Below are positions 48,396 to 63,261 of a stretch of DNA of 64,000 nt, piece by piece; the stretch's first letter is position 1; each line of letters begins with the position of its first letter. Source of the stretch: an uncultured Bacteroidales bacterium (GTDB lineage Bacteria > Bacteroidota > Bacteroidia > Bacteroidales > Paludibacteraceae); assembly GCA_900316995.1 (NCBI GenBank), contig ONEZ01000004.1, positions 62,001 through 126,000 of the forward strand. Reading direction: 5' to 3'. Under the pieces are notes generated by a model. It had not been told where the DNA came from, did no database searches, and saw only the letters and a program-made list of their open reading frames with translations. The position numbers and the translations under genes were made by a program.

Positions 48396-49277
48396 CTACC
48401 TGAAGTTGACGGTAATCTTGAGCCCTGCTTCCCAAAAACCAAGTGAGCTGGCTGAATTTGTGACGGAGACCACATCTACTGTGGCGGCAGGAGCCTGAGG
48501 GTTCTCTCCTATGCCGTGAACATACACCATGCTGTTCACTGTGTTACGGCTAAACACATTATATACGCAGTAGTCAAAATAGGCTCCCACCCCGATGCCA
48601 GGACCGTGCTTGATTTTTATCTCGTAGCCAACATCGCCGCCGGCAAAGAGCTGGAACTTAGGGGTGTTCCATGAGCCGTTAGACTTAACCGTATAATCAT
48701 TTACGCAGCCTGTAAACGGCTCATCCACAAGCGTTACTCCGTACTTGGCGTAATATGCCGTAATGTGTATGTCATCAGCGGTCTGATTATACGTACCTGC
48801 AAGCGGGAATGCCATTCTCACTCCTGCGTTAAAAAAGAGGCCGTTAAACAGAAAAGAGAACATGACCGGTATCTGCAACTGAACTTGAGAGAGCTGAGCC
48901 TTTACATTCTCTGCAGTTACAGTATAGTCAAGGCGGTCTCCTTCTGAATCAGATGTAGTGTACTGATCTTTTACGGAGCCGCTTAAACTTGCCGTACTGT
49001 AGCCAAGGCTTAGTCCTGTCTTTATCCCAAGGAAAGGGCGGTTATACATACTGCGGTTAAAATAACGGGTGTACTCCATATCAAGTCTGGCGGCAAAGCC
49101 CATGCCTCCGCTGATGCCTGCATCGGGAGCTGATATTGAAGAAACTCCACCTCTCGCCCCTACTCCAAACTGATTCATTCCTCTGTTAAACCTTGATGCG
49201 GCGTATGTACACAGCACGCTGAGTGTCAGCATAGTGCCAAGTACCACCCTTTTTGCTATTTGAGCACTCTCTACCAT
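48396..49277 (-). CDS. Outer membrane beta-barrel partner of the FISUMP/InlB protein, cassette 1
   Basis: A 293-residue exported barrel. Start chosen at the ATG at 49277 (MVESAQIAKRVV), which gives a signal peptide cut near CTYA. The longer reading would begin inside a REP-like element (49290-49317). The mature protein has amphipathic strands, a loop with KDQYTTSDSEGDRLDYTV, then QLQIPVMFSFLF, FGVGARGG and a C-terminal strand ending FR. The same loop and order occur in the C-terminal part of the 55468 protein, so they are paralogues. It is the second gene of a two-gene unit with the 49341 cargo gene, 63 bases downstream of it. Proposed role: dedicated outer membrane partner; unproven. Confidence 0.82.
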   Translation of the reverse strand: MVESAQIAKRVVLGTMLTLSVLCTYAASRFNRGMNQFGVGARGGVSSISAPDAGISGGMGFAARLDMEYTRYFNRSMYNRPFLGIKTGLSLGYSTASLSGSVKDQYTTSDSEGDRLDYTVTAENVKAQLSQVQLQIPVMFSFLFNGLFFNAGVRMAFPLAGTYNQTADDIHITAYYAKYGVTLVDEPFTGCVNDYTVKSNGSWNTPKFQLFAGGDVGYEIKIKHGPGIGVGAYFDYCVYNVFSRNTVNSMVYVHGIGENPQAPAATVDVVSVTNSASSLGFWEAGLKITVNFR

Positions 49278-49289
49278 TCTTATTATTCC

Positions 49290-49317
49290 CGTCACTCTGA
49301 GCCTTGCGAAGAGTCTC
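49290..49317 (-). repeat. REP-like intergenic element, copy D
   Basis: On the minus strand GAGACTCTTCG and CTCAGAGTGACG ends resemble copies A-C. It lies between the FISUMP/InlB gene and its barrel partner and argues against the longer reading of the barrel gene. Confidence 0.55.
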
Positions 49318-49340
49318 ACGCTCATTGTGACTTATTTCAT

Positions 49341-52300
49341 TTAACGCTTTCTTACTATGTACTTGAAGGTCTCCATGCCCTTGGATGTCCACACCACCAC
49401 AATGTATGTGCCTGCCATAGGCTCGGCTTTGAACGCTGCGGCTGGCTCTCCGTCTGTACGGAAACTGCGGTACAAGCGGCCTGCCACATCATATACATAG
49501 ACCTCAACCTCCTCCTTTGGCAGGTTCACAATCTCTATCTGCTGCTCCGGATATGTTATCGTAGGACTTACTGCCATTGCACGCTTAGTAGTACCCTTAG
49601 GGGCGTAGTGGAACACCACTGTACGCATCAGTCCGCTACAGCCTACCTCAGTGGTCTGCCATGGCAGGTCTATAAGGGCGTAATAGTCGCCTGTGTCATT
49701 CAATTTGCTGTTTATAGTATAGTAGTAGCCCGTACCAACCTTCTCATCGTCGCGTTCTCCGCTGTCAAGATTGTCCATCTCGCCAACCACTCTGTACCAG
49801 TCTACAATGTTCTCATTCAGGTTGTAACCCTTATCCTTGAGGGCGTTTGCGTTCAACATCAAGAGCCAGTCATACTTGGCTACAGCCGGAGCGTTAGCGC
49901 ACTCTGGGGTGTTATCGGCGGTCTGATGTATAAAGGAAACTGTAAACGCCATATCTTCTGTTACTGTTATCTTTATCTCCGCCGATGTCTCCCCTGTGCT
50001 CCATTTACTTACATGGTAGCCGTGCTCTGGGGTTGCGGTCAAAGTCACTTCTTTTCCATAACTGTATGTTCCGCCGCCGCTCACAGTTCCGCCATCGCCT
50101 GTTACCTCTGCTGTTACGGTATATGTGTTCAGCACTTTAGTAAACACTGCGGTGTAAGTTTGCGCTCCTGTTACGGCTGTAATGTTTGGACTCCAGCCAC
50201 TGAACGTGTAAGAATTCTCAGCATCAGCAGGTTTCACTGGAGTTGCACCTGTGTAAGCCGGGGACTGACCATACTCCACATCACCACTCTGTAACTCTGT
50301 ACCGTCATAGTACACAAACTTGATTTCGTATTTGTTTGTGGTTGAAGTGTAGGTTGCCTTGTAATCTTTTGCGCCTGTAACAGCTACAATCTCAGAATCC
50401 CAACCCTTGAAGGTGTAGGTGTATTGTGCAGTGGCTTCCTTGGTTGGTGTTTCTCCTTTGTATTCTGGGGTTGCACCGTATGCAAGCTCCTCACTCTGGA
50501 GTACAGCACCATCATCATTCAGGAAGCGCACTACGTACTTGTTAGTTGTGCTGCTGAACTGGGCGGTGTAGGTCTTTGCCTCTGTTACTGATGTTAGCTC
50601 TGGAGACCAACCTGTGAAGACGTAAGTGTTCTCAGCGTCTGCTGGCTTCTCTGGAGTTTCACCTGTATAAGCAGGAGTTACACCATACTCCACTTCACCA
50701 CTCTGTAGTTCTTCACCATTGTAGTTCACAAAGGTTATGAGATACTTATTAGTAGTAGGTGTATAAGTTGCAGTATAATCTTTTGCTCCAGCAACTTCCA
50801 CTATCTCACTATCCCAACCTGCAAATGTATAGGTATATTGTGCAGTAGCCTCCTTGGTTGGAGTCTCTCCTGTGTAAGCAGGAGTTGCTCCGTAATCAAG
50901 TTCCCCACTTTGCAGTTCAGTACCATCCTCATCCAAGAAACGGATAAAATATTTATTCACAGTGCTACTGAACTGAGCTATGTATGTTGCAGCATCTGTA
51001 ACCATAACCACCTCTGGGGACCAGCCACTGAAGTGGTATGTAAACTCAGCATCCGCAGGCTTCTCTGGAGTTGCTCCTGTGTAACTTGGAGTCTGACCAT
51101 ACTCCACCACACCGCTCTGCAACTCATCTCCATCATAATTCTTAAATACTATTGTGTATTTGTTCACAGTGCTGGTGTAAGTTGCTGTGTAGTCCTTAGC
51201 ACCAGTAACTTCTGCTATCTCAGAATCCCAGCCTTTGAATGTGTATGTGTATTGTGCAGTAGCATCCTTGGTCGGAGTTTCTCCAGTGTAAGCAGGAGTT
51301 GCACCATACTCAAGTTCCTCTTTCTGAAGCTCCGTGCCGTCTTCATCCAAGAAACGGATAAAATATTTATTTGTAGTTAAACTGTATGTAGCAGTATAAT
51401 CTTTTGCACCAGTTACTTCTGTTATCTCATTATCCCAACCATTGAAGGTGTATGTATATTGTGCAGTAGCCTGCTTGGTTGGGGTTTCTCCTGTGTATGC
51501 CGGAGTTGAACCGTAAGCCACCTCACTGCTCTGAAGCACGTCACCATTTTCATCTAAGAAACGGATAACATATTTATTTACAGTGTTACTGAACTGAGCT
51601 GTGTATGTTGCAGCATCTGTAACCATAACCACCTCTGGAGACCAACCACTGAAAGTGTAGGTATATTGGGCGGTAGCATCCTTGGTTGGCGTTTCGCCAG
51701 TGTATTCCGGCAGTGAGCCATACTCCACTTCACCGCTTTGCAGTTCTGTGCCGTCATAGTTCACAAACTTAATTTCAAACTTCTCAGGATTTTTTATACA
51801 ACGTACACATAATGCATGACTTTTAGCTTTTATCTCGTTGGCACCAAACATAAAGTTATCACCACCGTAATACACCTGCACAGTGCTGACATTAACGTCT
51901 GATATGGCATCCGATGTCCACCATTTGCCCCAGCCTCCAACACCGTAGGTACCAGACATATCCGCCCTATCAGCTGGCAGTGCAGAAAAACCGTATGTAT
52001 CAAAACCGTTTTTATCATTATGCCACCCCTGTTTTGTTTTTAAATGTTTGCCAGCAGTACCTTCTCCCTTGCTGTCAGTCAGTTCTATAAAGTCAACAAG
52101 TTCATGCCACTCATCAGTAGTAGGCAGATGCCATCCGTTAGGGCATATTCCCTGCCTGCGGTTCTTAAAAGGAGTTGTTTGGGACAGGGCCTCCGTATCA
52201 TTGGCAAAGCCAACCGCTGCCGCCCAACTAAAGAAAGTGCCAAGGTAAGGAATCTGGCTGCTTAATAATTTACCGTTAAATCCAGCCTGATTAGTGCCAG

Positions 52301-52625
52301 AAGAAGGATACACCTGATAATAAGGATAATAAGCATTGGTCACACGAGGCAATGGAACAGTTGCGCCTGCCCGTTCACTCTCAGTGTCATACTTATTGCA
52401 GCGCATATTTTCAGCCATCCATAGTTGTTTTCCAATTTTCACTACATTGTACTTGTTTCCACATATATCAGTAATAACAACTATAGAGTGCTCATTCTGC
52501 GGTGCATCAATAGGGGTAGGACCGCTAGATGGAGCGCCCATCGCCCCTAAGAACGCACACAGCAAAGCCACCACCAAGGCGAGCCTCAGCGTTATTAGTT
52601 TTGATATGTTGTCAAGTAAACCCAT
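49341..52625 (-). CDS. T9SS-exported FISUMP and InlB B-repeat protein, cassette 1
   Basis: A 1094-residue exported protein. Start is the ATG at 52625 (MGLLDN); the longer reading uses a TTG that overlaps the -7 box. After the signal peptide comes one FISUMP (Fibrobacter succinogenes major paralogous) domain at about 48-280, with DICGNKYNVVKIGKQLWMAEN and GICPNGWHLPTTDEW. Then eight InlB B-type repeats of about 69 residues (282-832), a diverged repeat (VTLTATPEHGYHVSKWS), a shared domain starting ADNTPECANAP (about 903-1015) and a type A-like T9SS sorting domain (about 1017-1094; VYVYDVAGRLYRSF, AGTYIVVV, YIVRKR). Likely surface-attached or secreted by T9SS. The barrel gene follows. Confidence 0.88.
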   Translation of the reverse strand: MGLLDNISKLITLRLALVVALLCAFLGAMGAPSSGPTPIDAPQNEHSIVVITDICGNKYNVVKIGKQLWMAENMRCNKYDTESERAGATVPLPRVTNAYYPYYQVYPSSGTNQAGFNGKLLSSQIPYLGTFFSWAAAVGFANDTEALSQTTPFKNRRQGICPNGWHLPTTDEWHELVDFIELTDSKGEGTAGKHLKTKQGWHNDKNGFDTYGFSALPADRADMSGTYGVGGWGKWWTSDAISDVNVSTVQVYYGGDNFMFGANEIKAKSHALCVRCIKNPEKFEIKFVNYDGTELQSGEVEYGSLPEYTGETPTKDATAQYTYTFSGWSPEVVMVTDAATYTAQFSNTVNKYVIRFLDENGDVLQSSEVAYGSTPAYTGETPTKQATAQYTYTFNGWDNEITEVTGAKDYTATYSLTTNKYFIRFLDEDGTELQKEELEYGATPAYTGETPTKDATAQYTYTFKGWDSEIAEVTGAKDYTATYTSTVNKYTIVFKNYDGDELQSGVVEYGQTPSYTGATPEKPADAEFTYHFSGWSPEVVMVTDAATYIAQFSSTVNKYFIRFLDEDGTELQSGELDYGATPAYTGETPTKEATAQYTYTFAGWDSEIVEVAGAKDYTATYTPTTNKYLITFVNYNGEELQSGEVEYGVTPAYTGETPEKPADAENTYVFTGWSPELTSVTEAKTYTAQFSSTTNKYVVRFLNDDGAVLQSEELAYGATPEYKGETPTKEATAQYTYTFKGWDSEIVAVTGAKDYKATYTSTTNKYEIKFVYYDGTELQSGDVEYGQSPAYTGATPVKPADAENSYTFSGWSPNITAVTGAQTYTAVFTKVLNTYTVTAEVTGDGGTVSGGGTYSYGKEVTLTATPEHGYHVSKWSTGETSAEIKITVTEDMAFTVSFIHQTADNTPECANAPAVAKYDWLLMLNANALKDKGYNLNENIVDWYRVVGEMDNLDSGERDDEKVGTGYYYTINSKLNDTGDYYALIDLPWQTTEVGCSGLMRTVVFHYAPKGTTKRAMAVSPTITYPEQQIEIVNLPKEEVEVYVYDVAGRLYRSFRTDGEPAAAFKAEPMAGTYIVVVWTSKGMETFKYIVRKR
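50130..51781 (-). repeat. Eight InlB B-type repeats, about 207 bp each
   Basis: In-frame repeats of two kinds. Type A has FVNYDG, SGWSPE and YTAQF; type B has RFLDEDG, GWDSEI and YTATY. Order in the protein is A B B A B A B A, so the AB alternation has one break near the second and third units. Confidence 0.8.
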
Positions 52626-52631
52626 TTTGTG

Positions 52632-52663
52632 CAAAGGTATGTATTACACCCTAATGATGCAAA
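52632..52663 (-). promoter_or_regulatory. Promoter of the cassette 1 cargo gene
   Basis: Minus-strand TTTG (52663-52660), a 20-base spacer and TACCTTTG (52639-52632) match the Bacteroidota consensus. The ATG at 52625 begins seven bases after the box, so the mRNA should be leaderless or nearly so. Confidence 0.75.
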
Positions 52664-52708
52664 TCTTTTTTGTGAAAAAGGTTGATGAATGAGTAGGGCA
52701 CAAAAAAG

Positions 52709-52834
52709 GCTGACGGAGAGTCAGCAAGCACGCTTCTGCGTGCCGTGCGTTAGCACGAAAGGGCAGCGTAGCTGCCATAATGAATGAAAAAGGGCACAAT
52801 AAAAGCTGACGGAGGGTCAGCTTTTATTGTGCCC
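52709..52834. other. Cluster of five hairpins next to tRNA-Leu
   Basis: Five perfect hairpins follow each other: gctgac/gtcagc at 52709-52725, gcacgc/gcgtgc at 52728-52743, cgtgc/gcacg at 52744-52757, ggcagc/gctgcc at 52762-52776, and a 19-bp perfect stem with a five-base loop at 52792-52834. The last stem overlaps the 3' end of tRNA-Leu and probably ends its transcript. Segments 52684-52725 and 52779-52821 are also similar direct repeats about 95 bases apart. Confidence 0.75.
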
Positions 52835-52913
52835 GGAACCGGGATCGAACCGGTATGGAGGTTAATCCACTGGTGTTTGAGACCAGCGCGTCTACCAATT
52901 CCGCCATCCGGGC
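52830..52913 (-). tRNA. tRNA-Leu (anticodon CAA)
   Basis: 84 bases on the minus strand. Acceptor GCCCGGA pairs with TCCGGGC; the D arm, a long variable arm typical of class II tRNA, and the TPsi arm with GGTTCGATCC are present. The anticodon stem CTGGT/ACCAG closes loop CTCAAAC, giving anticodon CAA. The CCA end is not encoded. Confidence 0.95.
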
Positions 52914-52935
52914 AAGTGTTTTAGTTTACAGGCTG

Positions 52936-52943
52936 CAAAGGTA
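52936..52943 (-). promoter_or_regulatory. -7 promoter element of tRNA-Leu
   Basis: TACCTTTG on the minus strand, 22 bases before the tRNA 5' end. The expected -33 region is A/T-rich without a clear TTG. Confidence 0.55.
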
Positions 52944-52987
52944 ATACATTTTTTTTGTTTTCCAATTTAATCAAGATATTTTTACTA

Positions 52988-52995
52988 TCTTTGGC
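52988..52995 (+). promoter_or_regulatory. -7 promoter element of the WG-repeat gene
   Basis: TATCTTTG exactly matches TAnnTTTG and lies 24 bases before the ATG at 53020. The -33 position reads TTT. Confidence 0.6.
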
Positions 52996-53019
52996 ACAAG
53001 TAACACAACCCCCATCACC

Positions 53020-54039
53020 ATGAAAAAGACAATTACCCTTATTTTATTGCTTATCACAATATGTGGCACAGCCTCAGCCCAATCCGCTTATAACCAACTA
53101 AAGACACTTGCTGGCACAGACGTTACCGTACCTAAGCCAAGTAACCCTGTATGTGCATATTGCGGTGTACCGCTTAACGGAACCCCACACAAGTCAACAT
53201 GCCCGTATGCCACCACAAGCGCCGCCACAAGTACAGGTTCATACAACACGCGTACCACCAGTGGTTATTCAGGCTCAACCGTATCCACTAACCAATACCT
53301 TATATCAACTGCAACATCGTTGCTTGGAGGTATGTTATCTGCGGCACTTAGCTCAAACCGCCAGCGCCAGATAACATCTGAAATCAGCAAACAGGCTGGC
53401 AATGGTGACGGAGGCTTTTACGTAACCAAAAACAGTGACGGGTACTACTCCATCTGGGATGACGAAGAGCAGAAATGGGTTATCACTCCAGAAGCCAGCA
53501 TAATGACCCGTATGTATCTATATGACTGCCATGCCGCCTGCATACAACGCTGGACTGGCAAAAAATGGGGCATCGCTGACCTAACCAGAAGGAACAAAGC
53601 TTGGGCAAGCAAATTCACCTACTGGTTCCAATTTGACGATGTTAACTGCGTGGACAAGAACGCACCTATAAGTGTGGCAAAGGGCAAGAAGAACCCTAAA
53701 TGGGGACTGATTACAAAAAACAAGAATAATGACAGCTGGACTATGACCTACAAACCAGAGTTCAGCTCACTCTCAATCATACAGGCAGACGGACGCTTTT
53801 TTGCCGTATGCGGCAAAGACGGCCTCTACACACTTATAGACCTGTTTGGCAATGTGCTTATACCACTGCTTTACAAAGCCATATCCCCAGCTTACGTTGA
53901 GGATGGCACCATCTACTTTACCATACAGGGGAATGACGGCTGGGGTATTATAGATGAGCACGGCAAGGAGATACTGCCATGCATCTATGAGAGCATAACC
54001 ATAGGAGAGGACGGCTTGGAAACCACCATGCGCCAGTAA
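53020..54039 (+). CDS. Exported WG-repeat-like protein with a CCHC cluster
   Basis: A 339-residue protein with a signal peptide cut near TASA. Residues C45, C48, H57 and C61 form a CxxC...HxxxC cluster that could bind zinc, unusual for an exported protein. A Ser/Thr-rich stretch (about 63-95) and a Leu/Ala/Ser segment (LISTATSLLGGMLSAALS) follow. The C-terminal half has WG-repeat-like units (KKWGIADL, PKWGLITK, DGLYTLIDLFGNVLIPLLY, DGWGIIDEHGKEILP). WG repeats build beta-propeller-like or solenoid folds of unknown role. Its stop is one base from the stop of the convergent ATPase gene. Confidence 0.75.
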   Translation: MKKTITLILLLITICGTASAQSAYNQLKTLAGTDVTVPKPSNPVCAYCGVPLNGTPHKSTCPYATTSAATSTGSYNTRTTSGYSGSTVSTNQYLISTATSLLGGMLSAALSSNRQRQITSEISKQAGNGDGGFYVTKNSDGYYSIWDDEEQKWVITPEASIMTRMYLYDCHAACIQRWTGKKWGIADLTRRNKAWASKFTYWFQFDDVNCVDKNAPISVAKGKKNPKWGLITKNKNNDSWTMTYKPEFSSLSIIQADGRFFAVCGKDGLYTLIDLFGNVLIPLLYKAISPAYVEDGTIYFTIQGNDGWGIIDEHGKEILPCIYESITIGEDGLETTMRQ

Positions 54040-54040
54040 G

Positions 54041-55168
54041 CTACCTCTGTTGTTTTAACCAGTAGGCAAACATTGGGTCTTGAAGAACTATCTTCTTAGA
54101 GGGAAGAATATCTATGATATCTTTCTTAAGGCAGCTGTCTTTTAGGTTCTTGATGTTGGCTGATGTTCCTAAATTGTACCTCTTAAGCACTGCTTCTGAA
54201 GAAAAGTTTATTTCTCCATTATTAATAGCATTGATAAAATTAATCTGTTTGGCTGTAAGGGAGTCTATCAAGTTGCAGAACAATAGATTCAGCTGACCTA
54301 TAATGCCGTCAAATGCATCTTTTACAATTTCATACGTGCAGACGTCGTTAGTTCTTAGCCAACTCTGCTGTGCAAGCTGCTGTACATAGTACGGGTGCAA
54401 ATCCACAAGCAGTACAAGTTCAAGCGCTGTATCCTCAGAAATGGTTTTACCTGTGCGTGCAAAAGTTTCTGTTATGAACTCTACCCAGTTCTCTTCATCA
54501 ATTTTTTCAAGAAATTTAATATCTCCAAATTTGTAGAATGGGTTAGAGTAATTGCCAAAGATGTCTAAAAGCATGTGGCGTTTGCTTCCATACAGACAAT
54601 AGCATACCGATGTGTGTTTCTGCCAGTGTGAACGTAATTTCTTCTGAAAATCAAGAGTATTATCAAATTCACATATATTTTGAAACTCATCTATACACAC
54701 AACTACTCTCTTGTGCCGTTCTTTGGCTATGTTTTGCGGCAAATCAAGTATCTCATCAACTGAGAACTGCTTGTCTTTGAAATCCACACCAAGTGATAAT
54801 TCGGCGGTTCCCATCCCGTCACCCAATGTTATTTTAGGCAAAAGGCCTCCAAGATATTTCTTCGCCGATGCCACAAATTCCTCAATTTTAGAAACTCCAG
54901 CCTTTAGTACAGCAGATGCAAAAGTGTTGTAGAAATCCGCCTCAGTTCTACAATTGAACACATCAATGCTTACTGTTATAAAATCCGGGTCTTCTGATAG
55001 TTCTAATAATGCCTTGTTTACAAGAGACGTTTTCCCCCAGCGTCGTGGTGAAATTATAACCGTATTAATTAGTCCCCTAAAGTTGTTTACAAGTGCTTCT
55101 GTCTCTTGTTTCCTGTCTGTAAATGAAGCTCCGTCAGCTATTTTCCCATATATAAAAGGTATCTCCAT
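54041..55168 (-). CDS. P-loop ATPase of the archaeal ATPase / STAND-like family
   Basis: A 375-residue cytoplasmic ATPase. Start taken at the ATG at 55168 (MEIPFIYGK); the longer reading would add 60 low-complexity residues encoded by the tandem repeats and promoter. Walker A SPRRWGKTSLV lies near 40-50 and Walker B VVVCIDEFQN near 155. A downstream HPYYVQQLAQ helix and C-terminal winged-helix-like part fit the ATPase_2 (PF01637) group, widespread in Bacteroidales and of unknown function. It is a single gene with its own promoter. Confidence 0.8.
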   Translation of the reverse strand: MEIPFIYGKIADGASFTDRKQETEALVNNFRGLINTVIISPRRWGKTSLVNKALLELSEDPDFITVSIDVFNCRTEADFYNTFASAVLKAGVSKIEEFVASAKKYLGGLLPKITLGDGMGTAELSLGVDFKDKQFSVDEILDLPQNIAKERHKRVVVCIDEFQNICEFDNTLDFQKKLRSHWQKHTSVCYCLYGSKRHMLLDIFGNYSNPFYKFGDIKFLEKIDEENWVEFITETFARTGKTISEDTALELVLLVDLHPYYVQQLAQQSWLRTNDVCTYEIVKDAFDGIIGQLNLLFCNLIDSLTAKQINFINAINNGEINFSSEAVLKRYNLGTSANIKNLKDSCLKKDIIDILPSKKIVLQDPMFAYWLKQQR

Positions 55169-55216
55169 AGTCAATGTGTCTTGCTTATTATCTACAGTGT
55201 TATTGCTATCACATTG

Positions 55217-55224
55217 CAAATGTA
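55217..55224 (-). promoter_or_regulatory. -7 promoter element of the ATPase gene
   Basis: TACATTTG on the minus strand matches the Bacteroidota -7 consensus 48 bases before the start at 55168. Its -33 region falls in the adjacent tandem repeat. Confidence 0.6.
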
Positions 55225-55230
55225 ATAAAT

Positions 55231-55288
55231 TTATTTGAAATAAAACTATTTGAAATGATTTTATTTGAAATAAAAGTATTTGAAATTT
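55231..55288. repeat. 30-bp tandem repeat at the ATPase promoter
   Basis: Two near-identical units (55231-55258 and 55261-55288), each made of the palindrome TTATTTGAAATAA and a TATTTGAAAT half. They overlap the -33 region of the ATPase promoter, so they may be operator sites. Confidence 0.75.
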
Positions 55289-55410
55289 TCGTAGATTTAG
55301 ACAACTTTGCAGTAGACATTCGTTGGAAAAAGTGCGGCAAACAGCCAAATATTCGTTGGGAAAAGTGTAGCAAAACTCAAAAAATGATTTGATAAGAGCC
55401 TGAAAACCAA

Positions 55411-55440
55411 CGCCACTACCCGTATGGTTGGGCAGTGGCG
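55411..55440. terminator. Probable terminator after cassette 2 barrel gene
   Basis: An 11-bp GC-rich stem with one G-U pair (55411-55421 with 55430-55440) encloses an eight-base loop. It lies about 28 bases beyond the stop at 55468. The T tract is better on the plus strand (GAATTTTTG) than on the minus strand (TTGGTTTT). Confidence 0.55.
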
Positions 55441-55467
55441 GAATTTTTGTGACAGTTCAAGAGGAAG

Positions 55468-56838
55468 TTACTTGCCAAAGTTGATGTTATACACAACCTT
55501 AATACCCACATCAAAGTAACCTAACTTGTTAATTGCTGCATCTACAGCAGGTAACACCTTAACCTCTGGTGCTGGGTTCTGAGGGTCTGCACCAATCTGC
55601 GGTATTGAAATCAGGCTCTTTGCCTCAGCGTTACGCTTAAAGGTGTTATAGGCGCAATAGTCCGCGTACACCCCAATGCCCAGACTTTGGTTATTCTTAA
55701 GTTTGAACTCATAACCTATTTCTGCCGAAGCGTAGAGCTGGAACATTGGTGCGCTCCATTCTCCCTTTGCATTCTTCTGCTCGTCAGTAACTCTACCTGT
55801 TATCAGATTATCAACACGTGTAACGCCGTAGGCATCGTAGTAGGCGGCAATATGCGGGTTCTCTAATGTCTGACTGTATGGTGAATAGACAGGTATTACA
55901 AACCGTGGACCTACGTTAAAGAACAAACCCTTGTGCAGCAATGTGAACATCAAAGGAATCTGAACCTGCAACTGCCCAAGCGTAGCGTTCACGGCATCGG
56001 CGGTAATAGTGTAGTCAATGCGGTCTCCGTCAGCATCTGTAGTGGTATATTGGTCATTTACACTTCCCTTTATGCCAGACGATGTATAGCCTACAGAAAC
56101 GCCAGCCAAAATGCCGCAATAAGGCTTATTTTCATTGCTACGCTTAAAGTAATGAGCATATTGAATGTCAAGCATGGCGTTGTAGCCCATCTTCCAACTG
56201 TAGTTCTGTTCTGTAAATGTGTTGGCGGCAACACCGCCTCTTAATCCTACGGATACACGGTCAAAACCTTTCAAGGCGATTGAATCAATCTTTGTTTGAG
56301 CAGCAGCGCTGACTGAATCAGGCTTCACTATATATACAGTATCCTTGCTCTGCCATTTTGTGCCACCATCAACAAACATGGTGTCATACTGTATAATGAC
56401 CTTGCGGTTAACCTTTAACACCGTGTCTATGCTGAACTCCACCTTACGGTCCTTGTATATGGTGTCTCTCAGAATAAGCGTATCTGTAACAACTTTAATC
56501 ACAGTATCATATAGAATAACGTACCTGCGCCCCAGTTTGTCAATGTTTGAGTCTGCTATGTGCAACACGTTCTTCTCCTGCTCCTTGGTGGCAACAGGAA
56601 CATCAGCCACTTTAACCCAAGAGTATATCTCTTGCAGCAGTACACCATCGGGGTGCTGCTTGCTTCCAACCTGCTGTACAGTGTATGTCTTACCCAAGAA
56701 ACGTTGCGGTATGCGCTCGCCTGTGGCGTATGTTGATGCTGTCTCACTCAAAGTTACCTTATCGCCTACATTTACAGCACCAGCTGTTGTTATGGTGGCT
56801 ATTACGCTTATCAGTGTGAAAAATATCTTGCTTTTCAT
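55468..56838 (-). CDS. SH3-like domain plus outer membrane barrel, partner in cassette 2
   Basis: A 456-residue exported protein. After the signal peptide (cut near TTAGA), residues of about 22-80 (VNVGDKVTLSETASTYATG, IPQRFLGKTYTV, LLQEIYSWVKV) resemble the SH3-like cell-wall-binding modules found in phage lysins and amidases; that similarity is from memory. A stalk of repeated D-T-V/I/L strands (about 108-175) follows. The C-terminal part (about 195-456) is a barrel paralogous to the 48396 protein, with VNDQYTTTDADGDRIDYTI and QVQIPLMFTLL. If correct, it could grip peptidoglycan with one end and sit in the outer membrane with the other. The 56857 cargo gene ends 18 bases upstream, so they share an mRNA. 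Confidence 0.8.
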   Translation of the reverse strand: MKSKIFFTLISVIATITTAGAVNVGDKVTLSETASTYATGERIPQRFLGKTYTVQQVGSKQHPDGVLLQEIYSWVKVADVPVATKEQEKNVLHIADSNIDKLGRRYVILYDTVIKVVTDTLILRDTIYKDRKVEFSIDTVLKVNRKVIIQYDTMFVDGGTKWQSKDTVYIVKPDSVSAAAQTKIDSIALKGFDRVSVGLRGGVAANTFTEQNYSWKMGYNAMLDIQYAHYFKRSNENKPYCGILAGVSVGYTSSGIKGSVNDQYTTTDADGDRIDYTITADAVNATLGQLQVQIPLMFTLLHKGLFFNVGPRFVIPVYSPYSQTLENPHIAAYYDAYGVTRVDNLITGRVTDEQKNAKGEWSAPMFQLYASAEIGYEFKLKNNQSLGIGVYADYCAYNTFKRNAEAKSLISIPQIGADPQNPAPEVKVLPAVDAAINKLGYFDVGIKVVYNINFGK

Positions 56839-56856
56839 ATTATACCTCCTTCCCTT

Positions 56857-59800
56857 TTACTTGACAATGTATTTTACAGACTCCGTTCCATCAGCACTCT
56901 TAATAACCACTATGTAGCTCCCCTGCCTCATTTCAGCCTCAAACTCAGCTGTATCCGCACCATGCGATGCAAAATGTCTGCAAAGCTTGCCTACATTGTC
57001 ATAGACGTATATCTCACAGTTCTCTTCCTGTGGCAGGTGCATAACCTGCATCCTTTGGTTTGGATAGGCTATTGTAGGAATCACTGCTGGAGCAGACCTC
57101 TTTGACGCTCCGTAACGGAACACCTGTGTGCGCATTATGCCCTTGCAGCCAACTTCTGAGGTCTGCTTTGGCAAGTCAATTAATGCGTAGTAGTCTCCTG
57201 TACCGACGAAAGACTTGTCTATGGTGTAGCCGTAGCCTTTGCCCACAAGCTGGTCTGTATGCATTGAGGCTGGATCATCAATGTTATCCATCTCCCCAAC
57301 TATCCTGTACCAGCTTACGTTGCCCTCACCAAAGGCGTAGCCTTGTGCGTTTAGTGCCTTAACGTTTATCATAAACAGCCAGTCATATTTTGCTACTGAC
57401 GGTGCGTTGTCACACGCAGGGGTGTTGTCCGCGCTCTGGCGTATCATTGTTATATTGTAGTGGAACAGGCTGTCACACTTGAGCGGAGTTACCTTTAGGT
57501 CATCTATTCTCTGGCTCTTGGTTACAAATATAGTCTTACCTGATTTAAGTGTAATCTCACCGCCCTCTGGGACAGAAACATCTATATCCTTCTCCACAGT
57601 GCAATGTATGAACTGGAAATAGGCTGTTAGTGTGGTGTCTTTAGTTATGATTATATGTATGGCTGAAGATTTTTCTCCATTACTCCAATACGTAAACTCA
57701 TAACCTTCATTTGGAGTTGCAGTAAGTGTGGCTGTTTCTCCATAGTCATATACGCCGTCACCTGTTGTCACACCTTCTGTTTGTGCTATAGTTTTTACGG
57801 TGTATTTGTTGGTTATACTTGAGAACTGGGCGGTATAGGTCTTTGGCTCTGTTACCTCAGCAATCTCTGGCTCCCAACCGCTGAATGTGTATGTATATTG
57901 GGCATCTGCTGGCTTGACCGGTGTCTGACCTTTATACTTTGGAGTGGCTCCGTAGTCTAGTTCTTCACTCTGCAACTCTTCACCATCGTAGTTCACAAAT
58001 TTGATTTCATATTTGTTCACTACGCTGCTATAGGTTGCAGTATAGTCTGTAGCCTCTGTTACGGTGGTTATTGCCTTGTCCCAACCATTGAAAGTATAGG
58101 TGTACTGCGCTGTGGCTGGTTTGGTTGGCTCTAGGCCTTTATACTCAGGTGTTGCACCATAATCCAAACTCTCAGACTGTAATACATCACCGTCATCATT
58201 CAAGAAACGGATGGTGTATTTGTTGGTTGTGCTGCTGAACTGGGCTGTATAAGTCTTCGCCTCAGTCACTTCCGCAATCTCAGGACTCCAACCAATAAAG
58301 ATGTAGGTATACTGGGCATCTGCTGGCTTGACAGGTGTCTGACCTTTATACTCTGGAGTGGCTCCGTAGTCTAGTTCTTCACTCTGCAACTCCTCACCAT
58401 CATAGTTTACAAACTTGATTTCATACTTGTTCACTACGCTGTTATAGGTTGCAGTATAGTCTGTTGCCTCAGTTACAGTGGTTATCGTTTTATCCCAACC
58501 TGCAAAGGTGTAAGTGTACTGGGCCGTAGTTGGTTTGGTTGGTGTTGATCCCTTGTACTCTGGTGTTGCACCATAATACAAACTTTCAGACTGCAAAACC
58601 TCACCGTTATCATTTAAGAAGCGAATGGTGTATTTATTGGTTGTGTTAGAGAACTGGGCAGTATAAGTCTTCGCCTCTGTCACTTCCACAATCTCTGGAC
58701 TCCAGCCGCTAAATGTATAGGTGTACTGAGCATCCGCTGGCTTAACTGGTGTCTGACCTTTATACACAGGTGTAACGCCGTATTCAAGTTCTTCGCTTTG
58801 TAGTTCATCACCATTGTAGTTGACGAACTTAATTTCATACATGTTTACTGTACTGCTATAGGTTGCTGTATAGTCAGTTGCCTCAGTTACGGTGGTTATC
58901 GTTTTGTTCCAACCATTAAATGTGTAGGTATATTGGGCTGTTGCTGGTTTGGTAGGTTCTGAGCCTTTGTATTCAGGTGTAGCACCATAATCCAAACTCT
59001 CTGACTGCAATACCTCACCGTTATCATTCAGGAAACGAACGGTGTATTTGTTGGTGGTACTTGAGAACTGAGCGGTGTAGATTTGCAGACCTGTTACCTC
59101 AGTAATCTCAGGACTCCAACCGTTAAACATATATGTGTACTGGGCATCTGTTGGCTTAACAGGTGTCTGACCCTTATACTCTGGAGTAGCTCCGTAGTCT
59201 AGTTCCTCACTCTGCAACTCTTCACCATCATAGTTCACAAACTTTATATCGTATTTGTTTACCGTACTGTTATAGGTTGCAGTATAGTCCGTTGCCTCAG
59301 TAACACTACTAATAGCTTTATCCCAACCATCAAAGGTGTAAGTGTATTGTGCAGTGGCTGGTTTGGTAGGTTCTGAGCCTTTGTATTCAGGTGTAGCACC
59401 ATAATCCAAACTCTCTGACTGCAATACCTCACCGTTATCATTCAAGAAACGGATGGTGTATTTGTTGGTTGTACTTGAGAACTGAGCAGTGTAGGTCTGA
59501 GGACCTATAACCTCGGTAATCTCTGGTTCCCAACCATTGAAAGTGTAGGTATATTGGGCATCAGCCGGCTTGACAGGTGTTGAGCCCTTATACACAGGAG
59601 TTTCCCCATATTCAAGTTCTTCACTTTGCAGTTCCTCGTTGTCATAGTTTACGAACTTAACCTCATACTTTACTCTTTGCACTAGACGAACTGAATGACC
59701 TACCGAACGAGAAAAATTAAAACCAGCCTCATAAGTGGTCTCTTTGGCGATTCCAAGGGCACTTTTCGCTGGTTGGTCAACGCTATGAGAAGAGGACCAG

Positions 59801-62800
59801 TATGCAATTGTCGGATCAAATTGCGTGCTACCAACCCTTCTTAAAGCATTTGAAACCAACACCGCTCCAGCATCTTCCATTTGAAACCATTCCACCAATG
59901 AATACACATTTTTATCCCAACTATTAGTTCCTGGGGTAAAAGTTAATCCTTGCGGTAAAGACCACAAATCTGGCAAAATAAGATAACAGTGGATTCCATT
60001 AACGGTCGCATTTCCTCGCAAATTTTCTGCATTTTCACGAGTATTGAATAGATATTTCCACTCAACATCACTTAATGTATACCATAGATTAGGCATATCC
60101 CCTCCATTTGCAATAGCATTATACACTCCCCAGTCAGAATAAGCATATAAGCCCTGCAAATCTGTATTATAATCTCCTCCTGGATAGTAGTCAGCTTGAT
60201 TATTGCTGGTTGAGAAAGGTTGGAATGCGTTAGCACCACTATCCCAACCGCTTGTTCCCCATCCAAATAAGTCTATCCAACCATTGTACGTTGATGAGAT
60301 TAAACTATTGTCACTTTTTATACCATTCTCATATACAGTACCTCTTGTGGCATCACCTACATAATCCCATTGGTTTTCTGCAAAGCGCCAAGTTCCTTGT
60401 TGCGTTGTACCATCGGCGCACTGATGAGTGCCAAGTGCCGCATTATATTGTAAATTACCTTGTGAGAAATGTACTTTTTTATTCTCTCCTACGGAAAATT
60501 CACCATTCAAGACACCATTCTTATATACTAGTCGCTTAATAAATGTCGCAGTATAAACCTTATCCTCTGTCGCAGGGACTATTTCACTATCCCAACCACT
60601 AAACACATATTTGTATTCTTCTGAATCTGATGGTTTATATGGAGTTGCGCCTGTATAGACTGGCGTTGCACCATACTCGAATTCACTGATTTGAAGCTCG
60701 GTTCCGTCATCATTCAGAAAAATAATTTCTGCGTATTTAGTTTTGACACAACGAACACTCCTTACATACCACTTACTAATATTAGCACTACCGAGATTAT
60801 CCATTGTGTAATTAAAGTATTTATTTCTTGCAAACTCTTCATCATAGGGTGTTGCAGTCCAAAAATAAGCACCATAACCGACATTTAATACGCTGTATGC
60901 ATTCCCATAGCCAGCAGGCAGTGCTTCAAATCCATACAAATCCGTACCGTTCCCATTGTCATACCAACCTGATGTAGTTTTTAGTTTCTTCCCTGAATCA
61001 GCTGAACCACCTAGCGTTTCTGCAAGTTCATTCCATTCCGTCTCAGATGGTACATGCCATCCGTTTGGACAGATACCTTGGCGGGTTCCGCCGAAAGCCG
61101 TCGTCTGCTCTTTTGCTTCTGATGCACTAGACAAACCTACGACAGCAGCCCAATTGTATAGGAATCCTAACTTTTCCCTTTGAGCATCTGTTAGGTTACC
61201 GCTATAACTTGTAGTGGTATTTCTTCCATCTGTGTAATATGGGGCATACGTTGTGCTATTTGACGTGGGGAGTGTAACTCCAGCCTGCTCACTCTCTGTG
61301 TCATACTTATTGCACTTCATGTTTTCAGCCAGCCATACCTGATTTCCAATCTTCACATAACGATATGTATTACCACAAATATCGCTTACCGCCCCATTTG
61401 ACACTACCTTAAACACGGCGGTATAAGTTTTATCTTCTGTAACGGGTTCTATTTCATTGTCCCAACCCGTGAACGTGTATGTATATTCTGCATCTGAAGG
61501 CTTGGTTGGAGTTGCGCCTGTATAGACTGGCGTTGCACCATACTCGACTTCACTATTTTGTAATTCATTGCCATCATAGTTCAGAAAACTAATGGATACG
61601 TATCTGTTCTTTAGGCAACGTACACTTCTAGCATTCTCCTTGCTACTATGGCTATCAAACAGGTTTGCATCCGTATAATTGGTAAAGCGTAAATATGTCT
61701 CATTAACACTGTGTGGTTTATCAGTCCAATAGCTTGTTACGCCACCAATTTCTTTAATGTTCGTACCCCCTGCAAAACCAGCTGGTAAGGAGGCAAAGCC
61801 ATACAAGTCTCTACCATTGCCATCTTCGTACCATCCTGATGTAGTTTTTAACTTGCTCCCTGCTATGCTTTCGCCACCTATGGTTTTAACAAGTTCTTCC
61901 CATTCTGTTGTAGTTGGTATATGCCACCCATTAGGGCATATTCCTTGCCTGAAGCCATTATATTCGTAAGTGTCAATTTTTGCTTCTGCTTCAGTTGCAT
62001 AGCCTACTGCCGCTGCCCAGTTGTACAATAAACCAAGTTGGGCTTTTTGTTCGTTTGTGAGGTTTCCACTGTAACTTGTAGTTGTATTCCTTCCATCCGC
62101 ATAGTATGGTGTATAATAAGAAGATTCTCCGTATGCAGATAGTGTGGCACCAGCTCGTTCGCTCTCAGTGTCATACTTGTTGCACTTCATGTTTTCAGCC
62201 AGCCACACTTGATTACCTATCTTTACATAATGGTATGCATTCCCACAGATATCTCTTATCGTTCCATTTGACACAGCCTTAAACACGACGGCATAAGTCT
62301 TGTCTTCCGTGACGGGTTCAATTTCATTATCCCAACCCGTGAACGTGTATGTATATTCTGCATCTAAAGGCTTGGTTGGAGTTGCGCCTGTATAGACTGG
62401 CATTGCACCATAAGCTACTTCCGTACTTTGCAATTCGTTGCCGTCGTAGTTTATGAATTTGATTATCGGACTTCTAACACAACGGATGCTACGTACTTCA
62501 AATTTAGAAAGAGAATAACGCTCTAGTTTGTCATTATCATGTCTTAAGTAGTACTCATAAGCATAATCCTCGTTGATTGGAGTAGAGGTCCAGTAATAAG
62601 TACGCATACCTATAGTGCTTCCTGCAGAGGCAGTCACATGACCTGCCGGCAAAGCTTCAAAGCCATATAGGTCTGCTCCGTTACCATCGTCATACCATCC
62701 TGATGTGCTCTTCAATTGTTTACCGGCTGTGCCTTCTCCTTTCCCCTCTATAGTTTCTATATGTGTAATTAAAGCCTCATATTCTGCATCAGTTGGCAAA

Positions 62801-63210
62801 TGCCACCCATTAGGGCATATACCCTGACGTGGCACACTGAATGTAGATGTCATAGCTTGTGACTCTGATTCATTCGCAAGACCCACTGCAGCAGCCCAAT
62901 TATACAGCAATCCCAGTTTCTGTCTTTGCTCTGTTGAAAGATTTCCGCTCTTGTCAGTAACAACATCCTTTCCATCAATATAAATTGGAGCGTATGTACC
63001 AATATCTGATGTATTAAGTGTATTTCCAGCACGCTCGCTCTGGGTATCATACGTTGTACACTTCAAATTCTCGGCCATCCAGTATTGACCGCCTATTTTC
63101 ACATAGTTATATGTATTCCCGCAAACATCAGTAACCAAACCAGTTGTTTGAGCAACAACAGCGAGTACATTTAGTGTCAACGAACTTAGAATGAGTAGTG
63201 ATTTTTTCAT
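56857..63210 (-). CDS. T9SS-exported multi-FISUMP and InlB B-repeat protein, cassette 2
   Basis: A 2117-residue exported protein. Start is the ATG at 63210 (MKKSLLILSS), giving a signal peptide cut near VVAQ. Three FISUMP domains begin near residues 29, 317 and 604 (DVCGNTYNYVKIG, DICGNAYHYVKIG, DICGNTYRYVKIG; each later GICPNGWH), each followed by one InlB-type repeat, with a 287-residue period. Residues of about 894-1181 are a fourth, variant domain (KKVHFSQGNLQY, YWSSS, VRLVQR). Nine InlB repeats follow (about 1182-1800), then a diverged repeat, the ADNTPACDNAP domain shared with the 49341 protein, and a type A-like sorting domain (about 2041-2117; IYVYDNVGKLCRHF, GSYIVVIKS, KYIVK). Probable T9SS cargo; ligand unknown. 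Confidence 0.88.
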   Translation of the reverse strand: MKKSLLILSSLTLNVLAVVAQTTGLVTDVCGNTYNYVKIGGQYWMAENLKCTTYDTQSERAGNTLNTSDIGTYAPIYIDGKDVVTDKSGNLSTEQRQKLGLLYNWAAAVGLANESESQAMTSTFSVPRQGICPNGWHLPTDAEYEALITHIETIEGKGEGTAGKQLKSTSGWYDDGNGADLYGFEALPAGHVTASAGSTIGMRTYYWTSTPINEDYAYEYYLRHDNDKLERYSLSKFEVRSIRCVRSPIIKFINYDGNELQSTEVAYGAMPVYTGATPTKPLDAEYTYTFTGWDNEIEPVTEDKTYAVVFKAVSNGTIRDICGNAYHYVKIGNQVWLAENMKCNKYDTESERAGATLSAYGESSYYTPYYADGRNTTTSYSGNLTNEQKAQLGLLYNWAAAVGYATEAEAKIDTYEYNGFRQGICPNGWHIPTTTEWEELVKTIGGESIAGSKLKTTSGWYEDGNGRDLYGFASLPAGFAGGTNIKEIGGVTSYWTDKPHSVNETYLRFTNYTDANLFDSHSSKENARSVRCLKNRYVSISFLNYDGNELQNSEVEYGATPVYTGATPTKPSDAEYTYTFTGWDNEIEPVTEDKTYTAVFKVVSNGAVSDICGNTYRYVKIGNQVWLAENMKCNKYDTESEQAGVTLPTSNSTTYAPYYTDGRNTTTSYSGNLTDAQREKLGFLYNWAAVVGLSSASEAKEQTTAFGGTRQGICPNGWHVPSETEWNELAETLGGSADSGKKLKTTSGWYDNGNGTDLYGFEALPAGYGNAYSVLNVGYGAYFWTATPYDEEFARNKYFNYTMDNLGSANISKWYVRSVRCVKTKYAEIIFLNDDGTELQISEFEYGATPVYTGATPYKPSDSEEYKYVFSGWDSEIVPATEDKVYTATFIKRLVYKNGVLNGEFSVGENKKVHFSQGNLQYNAALGTHQCADGTTQQGTWRFAENQWDYVGDATRGTVYENGIKSDNSLISSTYNGWIDLFGWGTSGWDSGANAFQPFSTSNNQADYYPGGDYNTDLQGLYAYSDWGVYNAIANGGDMPNLWYTLSDVEWKYLFNTRENAENLRGNATVNGIHCYLILPDLWSLPQGLTFTPGTNSWDKNVYSLVEWFQMEDAGAVLVSNALRRVGSTQFDPTIAYWSSSHSVDQPAKSALGIAKETTYEAGFNFSRSVGHSVRLVQRVKYEVKFVNYDNEELQSEELEYGETPVYKGSTPVKPADAQYTYTFNGWEPEITEVIGPQTYTAQFSSTTNKYTIRFLNDNGEVLQSESLDYGATPEYKGSEPTKPATAQYTYTFDGWDKAISSVTEATDYTATYNSTVNKYDIKFVNYDGEELQSEELDYGATPEYKGQTPVKPTDAQYTYMFNGWSPEITEVTGLQIYTAQFSSTTNKYTVRFLNDNGEVLQSESLDYGATPEYKGSEPTKPATAQYTYTFNGWNKTITTVTEATDYTATYSSTVNMYEIKFVNYNGDELQSEELEYGVTPVYKGQTPVKPADAQYTYTFSGWSPEIVEVTEAKTYTAQFSNTTNKYTIRFLNDNGEVLQSESLYYGATPEYKGSTPTKPTTAQYTYTFAGWDKTITTVTEATDYTATYNSVVNKYEIKFVNYDGEELQSEELDYGATPEYKGQTPVKPADAQYTYIFIGWSPEIAEVTEAKTYTAQFSSTTNKYTIRFLNDDGDVLQSESLDYGATPEYKGLEPTKPATAQYTYTFNGWDKAITTVTEATDYTATYSSVVNKYEIKFVNYDGEELQSEELDYGATPKYKGQTPVKPADAQYTYTFSGWEPEIAEVTEPKTYTAQFSSITNKYTVKTIAQTEGVTTGDGVYDYGETATLTATPNEGYEFTYWSNGEKSSAIHIIITKDTTLTAYFQFIHCTVEKDIDVSVPEGGEITLKSGKTIFVTKSQRIDDLKVTPLKCDSLFHYNITMIRQSADNTPACDNAPSVAKYDWLFMINVKALNAQGYAFGEGNVSWYRIVGEMDNIDDPASMHTDQLVGKGYGYTIDKSFVGTGDYYALIDLPKQTSEVGCKGIMRTQVFRYGASKRSAPAVIPTIAYPNQRMQVMHLPQEENCEIYVYDNVGKLCRHFASHGADTAEFEAEMRQGSYIVVIKSADGTESVKYIVK
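57818..59667 (-). repeat. Nine InlB B-type repeats in strict AB alternation
   Basis: Order A B A B A B A B A. Type A: FVNYDGEELQ, GWSPEI, YTAQF. Type B: RFLNDNGEVLQ, GWDKTI, YTATY. The repeating DNA unit is therefore about 413 bases, and neighbouring AB pairs are very similar, suggesting recent amplification by pairs. Confidence 0.8.
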
Positions 63211-63261
63211 ATTCAGCAATTTTCAGATTAATAACGCATAGGGGAAAAAGTAAGGATGGTT

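What the first reader, a model, noticed from the sequence alone, without database searches (positions are those of the whole stretch)
48396..63210. Duplicated cassette: T9SS FISUMP/InlB cargo followed by a dedicated outer membrane barrel
Two units in the same order and strand (49341 then 48396; 56857 then 55468) each pair a protein that has FISUMP domains, InlB B-repeats and a type A-like T9SS sorting domain with a barrel sharing a distinctive loop (DQYTT and GDRxDYT). The cargo proteins also share a domain starting ADNTP just before the sorting domain. This parallels the SprB-SprF pairing seen at 3964-17840, but with an unrelated-looking barrel. It could be an undescribed cargo-specific anchoring or delivery system. 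The truncated InlB protein at 1-1996 predicts a third copy, with a related barrel gene just outside the left edge.
Basis: partly seen in the sequence, partly recalled or inferred. Interest (0 to 1): 0.85.

Follow-up and report, generated by a model that had tools for sequence, protein, structure and literature searches.

The report
Secreted surface proteins paired with barrels
A gut-type bacterium carries several gene pairs in which a large exported surface protein is followed by its own small outer-membrane barrel, and some relatives of that barrel carry domains of the kind that hold on to the cell wall, suggesting an apparently undescribed way of bolting secreted proteins to the cell.

Summary
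Two cargo-barrel cassettes sit at the stated coordinates. The predicted third exists just left of the window, with a GDRVDYT barrel. A distant fourth lies elsewhere in the genome.

The rule is not FISUMP/InlB. It is a ~105-residue domain before the C-terminal signal (the 'ADNTP' domain). Of 71 distinct barrels found through barrel searches or the home cassettes, 68 directly follow a protein with it. In the home genome the 4 of 27 type A T9SS signals with a barrel carry it, against 0 of 19 others examined. The reverse is looser: 13 of 20 examined unpaired domain proteins have no barrel next to them.

The barrel is not PorP/SprF or PorV by sequence. Many members carry a wall-type module: 44 of 112 an endolysin-related domain, 9 OmpA, none both, 59 neither. 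One OmpA member sits inside an SH3 clade.

Best reading: a cognate T9SS anchor, possibly shuttle, for type A cargo, like PorE-PorP-type B but with the wall grip fused to the barrel. No binding was tested. Barrel divergence follows the sorting domain more than the docking domain, so the contact site is open.

The parts
48396..49325 (-). Partner barrel 1 (309 aa from the first ATG; no SH3-like or OmpA module found)
   Evidence: OMP_b-brl_2 28.8 bits against a cut-off of 27 for its barrel part
49341..52634 (-). Cargo 1 (about 1094 aa from the ATG at 52625): FISUMP, InlB-type repeats, pre-CTD domain, type A sorting domain
49344..49574 (-). Type A sorting domain of cargo 1
49599..49922 (-). Pre-CTD (ADNTP) domain of cargo 1
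51792..52442 (-). FISUMP domain of cargo 1
55468..56838 (-). Partner barrel 2 (456 aa): signal peptide, SH3-like module, linker, barrel
56578..56796 (-). SH3-like module related to phage endolysin domains
55981..56070 (-). Proposed extracellular loop 2 with DQYTT...GDRIDYT
   Evidence: hand topology
56857..63219 (-). Cargo 2 (about 2117 aa from the ATG at 63210): three FISUMP, InlB-type repeats, pre-CTD domain, type A sorting domain
56860..57087 (-). Type A sorting domain of cargo 2
57106..57435 (-). Pre-CTD domain of cargo 2
60742..61356 (-). FISUMP domain of cargo 2
61609..62226 (-). FISUMP domain of cargo 2
62473..63102 (-). FISUMP domain of cargo 2
1..1996 (-). N-terminal part of cargo 3; its C-terminus and barrel 3 lie left of the window (L001:10264-15996 and L001:9356-10249; window position = L001 position minus 14000)

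Best explanation
Each cassette is a cognate pair. The cargo carries a Sec-type signal (by eye) and is exported by the T9SS through its type A sorting domain (inferred from TIGR04183 and the presence of SprA and PorV). At the surface, the cargo's C-terminal region (the Ig-like pre-CTD domain, probably together with the sorting domain) docks on the long outer loops of a small, probably 8-stranded barrel encoded by the next gene (inferred). In many family members the barrel reaches into the periplasm with a wall-type module: an SH3-like domain at the N-terminus or an OmpA domain at the C-terminus. That module would tie the cargo through the outer membrane to peptidoglycan (inferred from domain identity and module replacement). 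Members without such a module, including two of the three close barrels here, would only hold cargo in the membrane or share a wall link. The barrel may also act as a dedicated shuttle.
For: 1) Pairing. Of 71 distinct strong barrels brought in by barrel searches (or the home cassettes), 68 directly follow a pre-CTD protein, 1 is cut by a sequence end and 2 do not. With the loci chosen for other reasons the figures are 99, 7 and 6 of 112. In the family search, 123 of the 150 best barrel places and 123 of the 150 best pre-CTD places form same-strand pairs. Control: no pre-CTD ORF at 15 loci of weak, generic barrel matches. 2) Within-genome control. Of 27 type A signals, 4 have a barrel and the same 4 have the domain; 0 of 19 others examined do (4 not fetched). 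3) The upstream domain is one family. Models built without the test row's genus recognised 33 of 33 distant upstream domains from 18 genera (stricter repeat). 4) The pair survives loss of the type A sorting domain. 10 of 99 paired cargos end in a short tail but keep the pre-CTD domain. 5) Wall-type modules. 44 of 112 have the SH3-like domain, 9 have OmpA, none has both. One OmpA barrel lies in a clade of 17 (support 100/100) whose other 16 are SH3. The SH3-like domain aligns with a region between GH25 and LysM in two phage muramidases (hhalign 97-98%). In 61 genomes (own and relatives) it occurs 4 times at E up to 0.001, all four in these barrels by position. 6) SprA, PorV, and a sorting-domain protein of PorU size next to PorV are present.
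Against: No binding, localisation or wall attachment was tested, and structure prediction was off. Pairing is not strict from the cargo side: of 20 fetched pre-CTD places that looked unpaired, 13 have no barrel directly downstream, 5 do, 1 lies near a contig end and 1 has a barrel-type leader cut by the contig end. Five of the 13 are followed by the same unrelated gene (by eye a MiaB-like enzyme). Such cargos need another anchor or a barrel encoded elsewhere. Barrel divergence follows the sorting domain (rank r 0.61; partial 0.60) more than the pre-CTD domain (0.28; partial 0.24) over 50 pairs, so the pre-CTD domain may not be the main contact. 59 of 112 barrels have neither module (some are cut), including two of the three close own-genome barrels. 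True orphan barrels exist (L046, L142). PG binding by this SH3-like domain is inferred from lysin relatives and not shown. A wall tie may place a shuttle or channel rather than hold cargo.
Confidence: 0.55

Rival explanations
1. Dedicated shuttle. The barrel takes this CTD subtype out of SprA in place of PorV, as PorP/SprF do for type B signals, and anchoring is secondary.
For: Of the three distance comparisons, barrel and CTD are the most strongly coupled. A CTD model trained outside the genus scores the three contig-17 paired CTDs at 56-58 bits; of the 20 other fetched CTD loci 4 were reported, at most 26.3 bits. Cognate shuttles are known for type B (PMC12618676, sections 4 and 12 read).
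Against: The barrel is not of the PorP/SprF or PorV family and looks 8-stranded (by hand). 10 of 99 cargos have lost the type A CTD but keep the barrel. A shuttle needs no wall-binding module. The paired contig-29 CTD is not recovered by the subtype model.
Confidence: 0.23
2. Nutrient pair. The cargo captures a ligand and the barrel takes it up, as in surface lipoprotein-barrel complexes such as SusCD.
For: Surface lipoprotein-barrel complexes are called a hallmark of Bacteroidota (PMC12578637, passages read). The cargo N-terminal parts are diverse.
Against: The barrel seems too small for a channel (hand topology), and wall-type modules do not fit a porin.
Confidence: 0.08
3. Operon neighbours without contact. 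An ordinary small OMP is co-inherited with a surface protein gene.
For: No interaction data. Some domain proteins have no barrel beside them. Small OMPs are common in Bacteroidota (recalled).
Against: The barrel-to-domain rule holds across many genera, within one genome, and while the rest of the cargo changes. Generic barrels do not show it.
Confidence: 0.1

Closest known systems
PorE-PorP-PG1035 complex of P. gingivalis and SprF-SprB of F. johnsoniae (PMC9143113, passages read; PMC12618676, sections 4 and 12 read)
   Same: A T9SS cargo is bound by, and in F. johnsoniae often encoded beside, a cognate outer-membrane barrel. In the PorE version a wall-binding OmpA-type domain completes the chain.
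   Different: There the cargo has a type B CTD and the barrel is a 14-stranded FadL-type PorP/SprF, with PorE a separate protein. Here the cargo has a type A CTD, the barrel is a small one unrelated by sequence, and the wall-type module, where present, is fused to the barrel.
PorZ/PorQ handling of an uncleaved sorting domain (PMC10202324, passages read)
   Same: A sorting-domain protein kept by a cognate barrel, which is proposed to protect the CTD from cleavage.
   Different: PorQ is described there as PorV-like. The barrel here is not. CTD fate here is unknown.
BT1927 S-layer surface lipoprotein with its putative 8-stranded anchor barrel BT1926 (PMC12578637, passages read)
   Same: A large surface protein with a small, probably 8-stranded barrel as its proposed anchor or secretion partner, encoded in one locus.
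   Different: That cargo is a surface lipoprotein, not a T9SS substrate. I did not have BT1926's sequence and did not test homology.
OMP_b-brl_2 (PF13568)
   Same: Some members score over its cut-off.
   Different: It is a broad family. The partner barrels form a narrower one with long, partly conserved loops.

Membership tests
PorP/SprF family | Match to PF11751 / TIGR03519 | tested here: not met
   No match for either window barrel, nor to PF11751 for the three barrel domains at E up to 10. hhalign against the window's SprF aligns only a signal peptide or a fragment.
PorP/SprF family | Partner cargo bears a type B CTD | tested here: not met
   The paired cargos of this genome match the type A model TIGR04183 over cut-off.
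PorV family | Match to NF033709 | tested here: not met
   The three matches in the genome lie elsewhere.
T9SS type A cargo | TIGR04183 over cut-off at the C-terminus | tested here: met
   26.3 and 27.0 bits against 23; third cargo 32.5 bits.
T9SS type A cargo | Export by SprA with PorV, CTD cleaved by PorU | not testable with these tools
   The genes are present (PorU by size and place only). The event needs an experiment.
OMP_b-brl_2 | Over the PF13568 cut-off (27 bits) | tested here: inconclusive
   28.8 bits for barrel 1, 22.9 for barrel 2, none for barrel 3. L105 and L115 are over it, L113 has none.
Peptidoglycan-anchored barrel (PorE/OmpA-like principle) | A recognised PG-binding domain in the chain | tested here: inconclusive
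   OmpA over cut-off in 7 of 10 relatives scanned, most of them picked for their long C-termini. In the home genome barrel 2 has only the lysin-related domain, barrels 1 and 3 have none, and the contig-29 barrel has OmpA.
Surface lipoprotein-barrel complexes | Lipobox cysteine at the cargo's signal peptide | tested here: not met
   Read by eye only, in the two window cargos; no cysteine at the end of the signal peptide.

The most novel reading that the evidence does not exclude
A wall-bolted fate for type A T9SS cargo, beside A-LPS linkage and release. A family of cognate barrels holds the uncleaved cargo C-terminus and grips peptidoglycan with a fused module. In one Bacteroidales family that module came from a lysin-type domain of Gram-positive bacteria or their phages, and it can be replaced by OmpA.
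Probability: 0.33. Interest if true: 0.78.

Novelty: new variant of a known kind. Interest (0 to 1): 0.62.

Why it matters
Type A CTDs are the most represented T9SS signal. The review passages read give A-LPS linkage or release as their fate and call the choice between them unresolved (PMC10202324). A cognate barrel family with built-in wall-type domains would give a subset of type A cargo its own destination, readable from sequence. It would help predict surface architecture in uncultured gut Bacteroidales. Members in another family of the class (f7) offer a possible route to a tractable host. The reuse of a lysin-type domain inside a Gram-negative periplasm would also be notable.

Tried and rejected
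The idea that pairing depends on FISUMP/InlB was rejected. Homology of the barrel to PorP/SprF or PorV was not supported. PDB profile searches for the barrel, the pre-CTD domain and the SH3-like domain gave only chance-level hits. Pfam scans of the pre-CTD and SH3-like members gave only scattered weak hits, one of them Ig_7 at E 0.025. The mirror-tree test went against a simple 'pre-CTD is the lock' view and is reported as such. A strict two-way pairing rule was rejected: many unpaired domain proteins have no barrel. hhalign A5 against A9 (probability 100) is not independent, because A9 contains two barrels that are also in A5; the independent link is the A5 search. The first leave-out test had kept some rows of the same genus in training; it was repeated strictly with the same 33 of 33. 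The first SH3 regular expression matched nothing and was corrected. The promoter-like count equalled the shuffled mean.

Literature. One search returned 9 papers, from which the main T9SS papers were taken. Searches returned none. Searches returned papers; I saw their titles and abstract starts, and none describes this pair. One search found 24 papers and listed 20. I read sections or passages of four papers only (PMC12618676, PMC9143113, PMC10202324, PMC12578637). A prior description elsewhere cannot be excluded.

Full report
The window is part of contig 17 of a 2.15 Mb draft genome. Named relatives are uncultured Bacteroidales, one of them a goat-reticulum MAG labelled Paludibacteraceae (that the RUG labels mean rumen is recalled). 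Both reported cassettes are present as described. The 18 kb fetched around the left edge shows the third cargo complete, with its barrel 14 bp downstream bearing DQYTTADADGDRVDYT. The own genome has three close barrel matches.

What defines the cargo. I aligned the C-termini of the proteins upstream of 38 barrels: 29 of the 30 loci (L005 is window barrel 2), six loci, the third own cassette and the two window cassettes. L006 and L035 are the same gene, so 37 are distinct. They share one plan: a variable N-terminal part, a ~105-residue pre-CTD domain, and a type A-like CTD. Gaps to the barrel are 9 to 87 bp. By eye, one CTD (L015) is degenerate and L023's pre-CTD domain is divergent or cut. FISUMP and InlB repeats are not general: 1 of 7 paired cargos scanned elsewhere has them.

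How strict the pairing is, from the barrel side. The barrel profile matches 160 of 300 family genomes and the pre-CTD profile 109 of 300. Only the 150 best places of each search are listed. Of these, 123 and 123 pair, with the domain 192 to 1258 bp upstream on the same strand. I looked at 21 of the 27 unpaired barrels (20 fetched, and L023). Several lie at contig ends and others have a divergent version of the domain upstream. With a broader model, 99 of 112 distinct strong barrels follow a domain protein, 7 lie within 200 bp of a sequence end and 6 do not. This set is mixed: some loci were chosen as paired, as unpaired, or around domain hits. Counting only barrels brought in by barrel searches or from the home cassettes, 68 of 71 pair, 1 is at an end and 2 do not. 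Of the six, L023 is a cut cargo with a CTD, L079 has a 118-aa domain ORF that my length filter dropped, L052 and L057 have a domain protein downstream, and L046 and L142 look like true orphans. Models built without the test row's genus still recognised 33 of 33 distant upstream domains from 18 genera. At 15 loci with weak, generic barrel matches (L148-L162) no ORF had the domain.

From the cargo side it is looser. I fetched 20 of the 27 domain places that looked unpaired. Five have a barrel after all and L068 has a barrel-type leader cut by the contig end. L066 has only 616 bp left. The other 13 have no barrel directly downstream; five of these (L072, L073, L074, L077, L078) are followed by the same unrelated gene. 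Four of the 13 (L064, L065, L069, L082) have a complete pair nearby in the same stretch.

Within the own genome, 27 type A signals were found. Four are followed by a barrel: three on contig 17 and one on contig 29, whose barrel carries OmpA. I fetched 20 of the 24 places outside the three contig-17 pairs. Only the contig-29 protein has the pre-CTD domain. The whole-genome pre-CTD search at 1e-5 found only the three contig-17 copies. A CTD model trained outside the genus scores the three contig-17 paired CTDs at 56-58 bits. Of the 20 other loci, 4 were reported, at most 26.3 bits; the paired contig-29 protein was not among them. So the paired CTDs of contig 17 form a subtype, but not one that covers the distant pair.

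Distribution. The first barrel profile matched 15 of 393 genomes of the order, of which four are the own genome and family members, and 4 of 395 of the phylum sample, own included. A profile widened with distant members matched 34 of 395, many of them weakly. Fourteen non-own genomes have a match better than 1e-40; in 13 of the 14 best-match loci a domain-plus-CTD protein is directly upstream (L142 is the exception).

The barrel. Alternating hydrophobicity in hand-drawn segments fits eight strands with short inner turns and four outer loops, three of them 30-41 residues long; strand 3 alternates weakly. This is a reading by eye, not a prediction. The DQYTT...GDRxDYT motif falls in the second outer loop and is kept in degenerate form in the 28 rows aligned. 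The barrel is not PorP/SprF or PorV by sequence.

Wall-type modules. Window barrel 2 and many relatives start with a ~70-residue domain (44 of 112 strong barrels), followed by a long linker rich in D/E/Q/A/P or DTV. tblastn of the window domain finds 207 phage records; of the 30 listed, 21 are annotated as lysin, endolysin, lysozyme or muramidase, 6 as hypothetical, and 3 have no annotation. A second query (L021) gives only weak hits (E 0.07 or more), 11 of 12 listed being lysins or cell wall hydrolases. In two phage muramidases the matching region lies between GH25 and LysM, with hhalign probabilities of 97.0 and 97.9%. The name SH3-like is my recollection of such lysin domains; neither Pfam nor NCBIfam names this stretch. 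In 61 genomes the domain occurs 4 times, each inside one of these barrels by position. Other members carry a C-terminal OmpA domain: 7 of the 10 barrels scanned, most of them picked for their length, and 9 of 112 by a local model. None has both; 59 have neither, some of them cut. On the barrel tree of 107 rows L018 (OmpA) lies inside a 100/100-supported clade of 17 whose other 16 have the SH3-like domain. L018 also has a weak carboxypeptidase-regulatory match before OmpA (E 0.0019, under cut-off), an order that recalls PorE as described in PMC9143113 (passages read). Replacement of one wall-type domain by another is the main reason to infer a wall tether.

What the barrel reads. Two lines disagree. 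Ten of 99 paired cargos lack a type A CTD and end in a short tail but keep the pre-CTD domain; 72 have the CTD by model and 17 more by eye. This favours the pre-CTD domain as the dock. Over 50 complete pairs, however, barrel distances follow CTD distances (rank r 0.61, partial 0.60) more than pre-CTD distances (0.28, partial 0.24). With Pearson correlation the partial values are 0.59 and 0.20; 0 and 7 of 500 permutations reached them. There was no species-tree control. The safest statement is that the barrel is matched to the whole C-terminal region.

Mechanism and place among known systems. SprA lies in the window (35050-42321) and PorV on contig 14, next to a 1132-aa frame with a CTD that fits PorU by size and position. 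Type B cargo is known to be bound by cognate PorP/SprF barrels, in one case linked to the wall by PorE (PMC9143113, passages; PMC12618676, sections 4 and 12). Cognate barrels have been proposed to protect CTDs from cleavage (PMC10202324, passages). BT1926 is a putative 8-stranded anchor of an S-layer lipoprotein (PMC12578637, passages). The present family works like these but does not meet the membership tests of PorP/SprF or PorV. I therefore rate it a new variant of a known kind.

Noticed in passing
L015, L048, L076, L080, L082, L083, L125 (cargo C-termini); also L036:1787-4268: A ~30-residue tail (pattern like NGKLYIITEDNVMYDAQGQKV) replaces the type A sorting domain in paired cargos and ends two neighbouring proteins in L036. 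It may be another surface-targeting signal. L061, L063 and L126 end in a different short tail.
   Followed up: partly
L064, L069, L100, L101, L102: Minimal cargos of about 240-270 aa holding little more than a signal peptide, the pre-CTD domain and the CTD; in each locus one sits beside a short barrel without a wall-type module.
   Followed up: partly
G000:C29, L110:3-2868: A fourth pair in the home genome, with a divergent pre-CTD domain and an OmpA-bearing barrel.
   Followed up: yes
L072, L073, L074, L077, L078: Domain proteins without a barrel, each followed by the same gene (by eye a MiaB-like methylthiotransferase). In L073, L074 and L078 the C-terminal domain after the pre-CTD domain was not matched by the CTD model.
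   Followed up: partly
L016 and L029 barrels: The lysin-related domain is duplicated in tandem.
   Followed up: no
L009, L010, L017 barrels: An extra N-terminal segment (FSGGDGSxxNPYxI..., GLUG-like by eye) precedes the lysin-related domain.
   Followed up: no
L046:3426-4805 and L142:1492-2379: Apparent orphan barrels without a domain protein upstream. In L052 and L057 the domain protein lies downstream instead.
   Followed up: partly
window 52709-52913: tRNA-Leu (52829-52913) runs into a 19-pair terminator-like hairpin (52792-52834), and a shorter related hairpin (52709-52725) lies near the start of cargo 1.
   Followed up: no
window 35050-42321: The gene for the T9SS translocon SprA lies in the same window as the cassettes.
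   Followed up: partly
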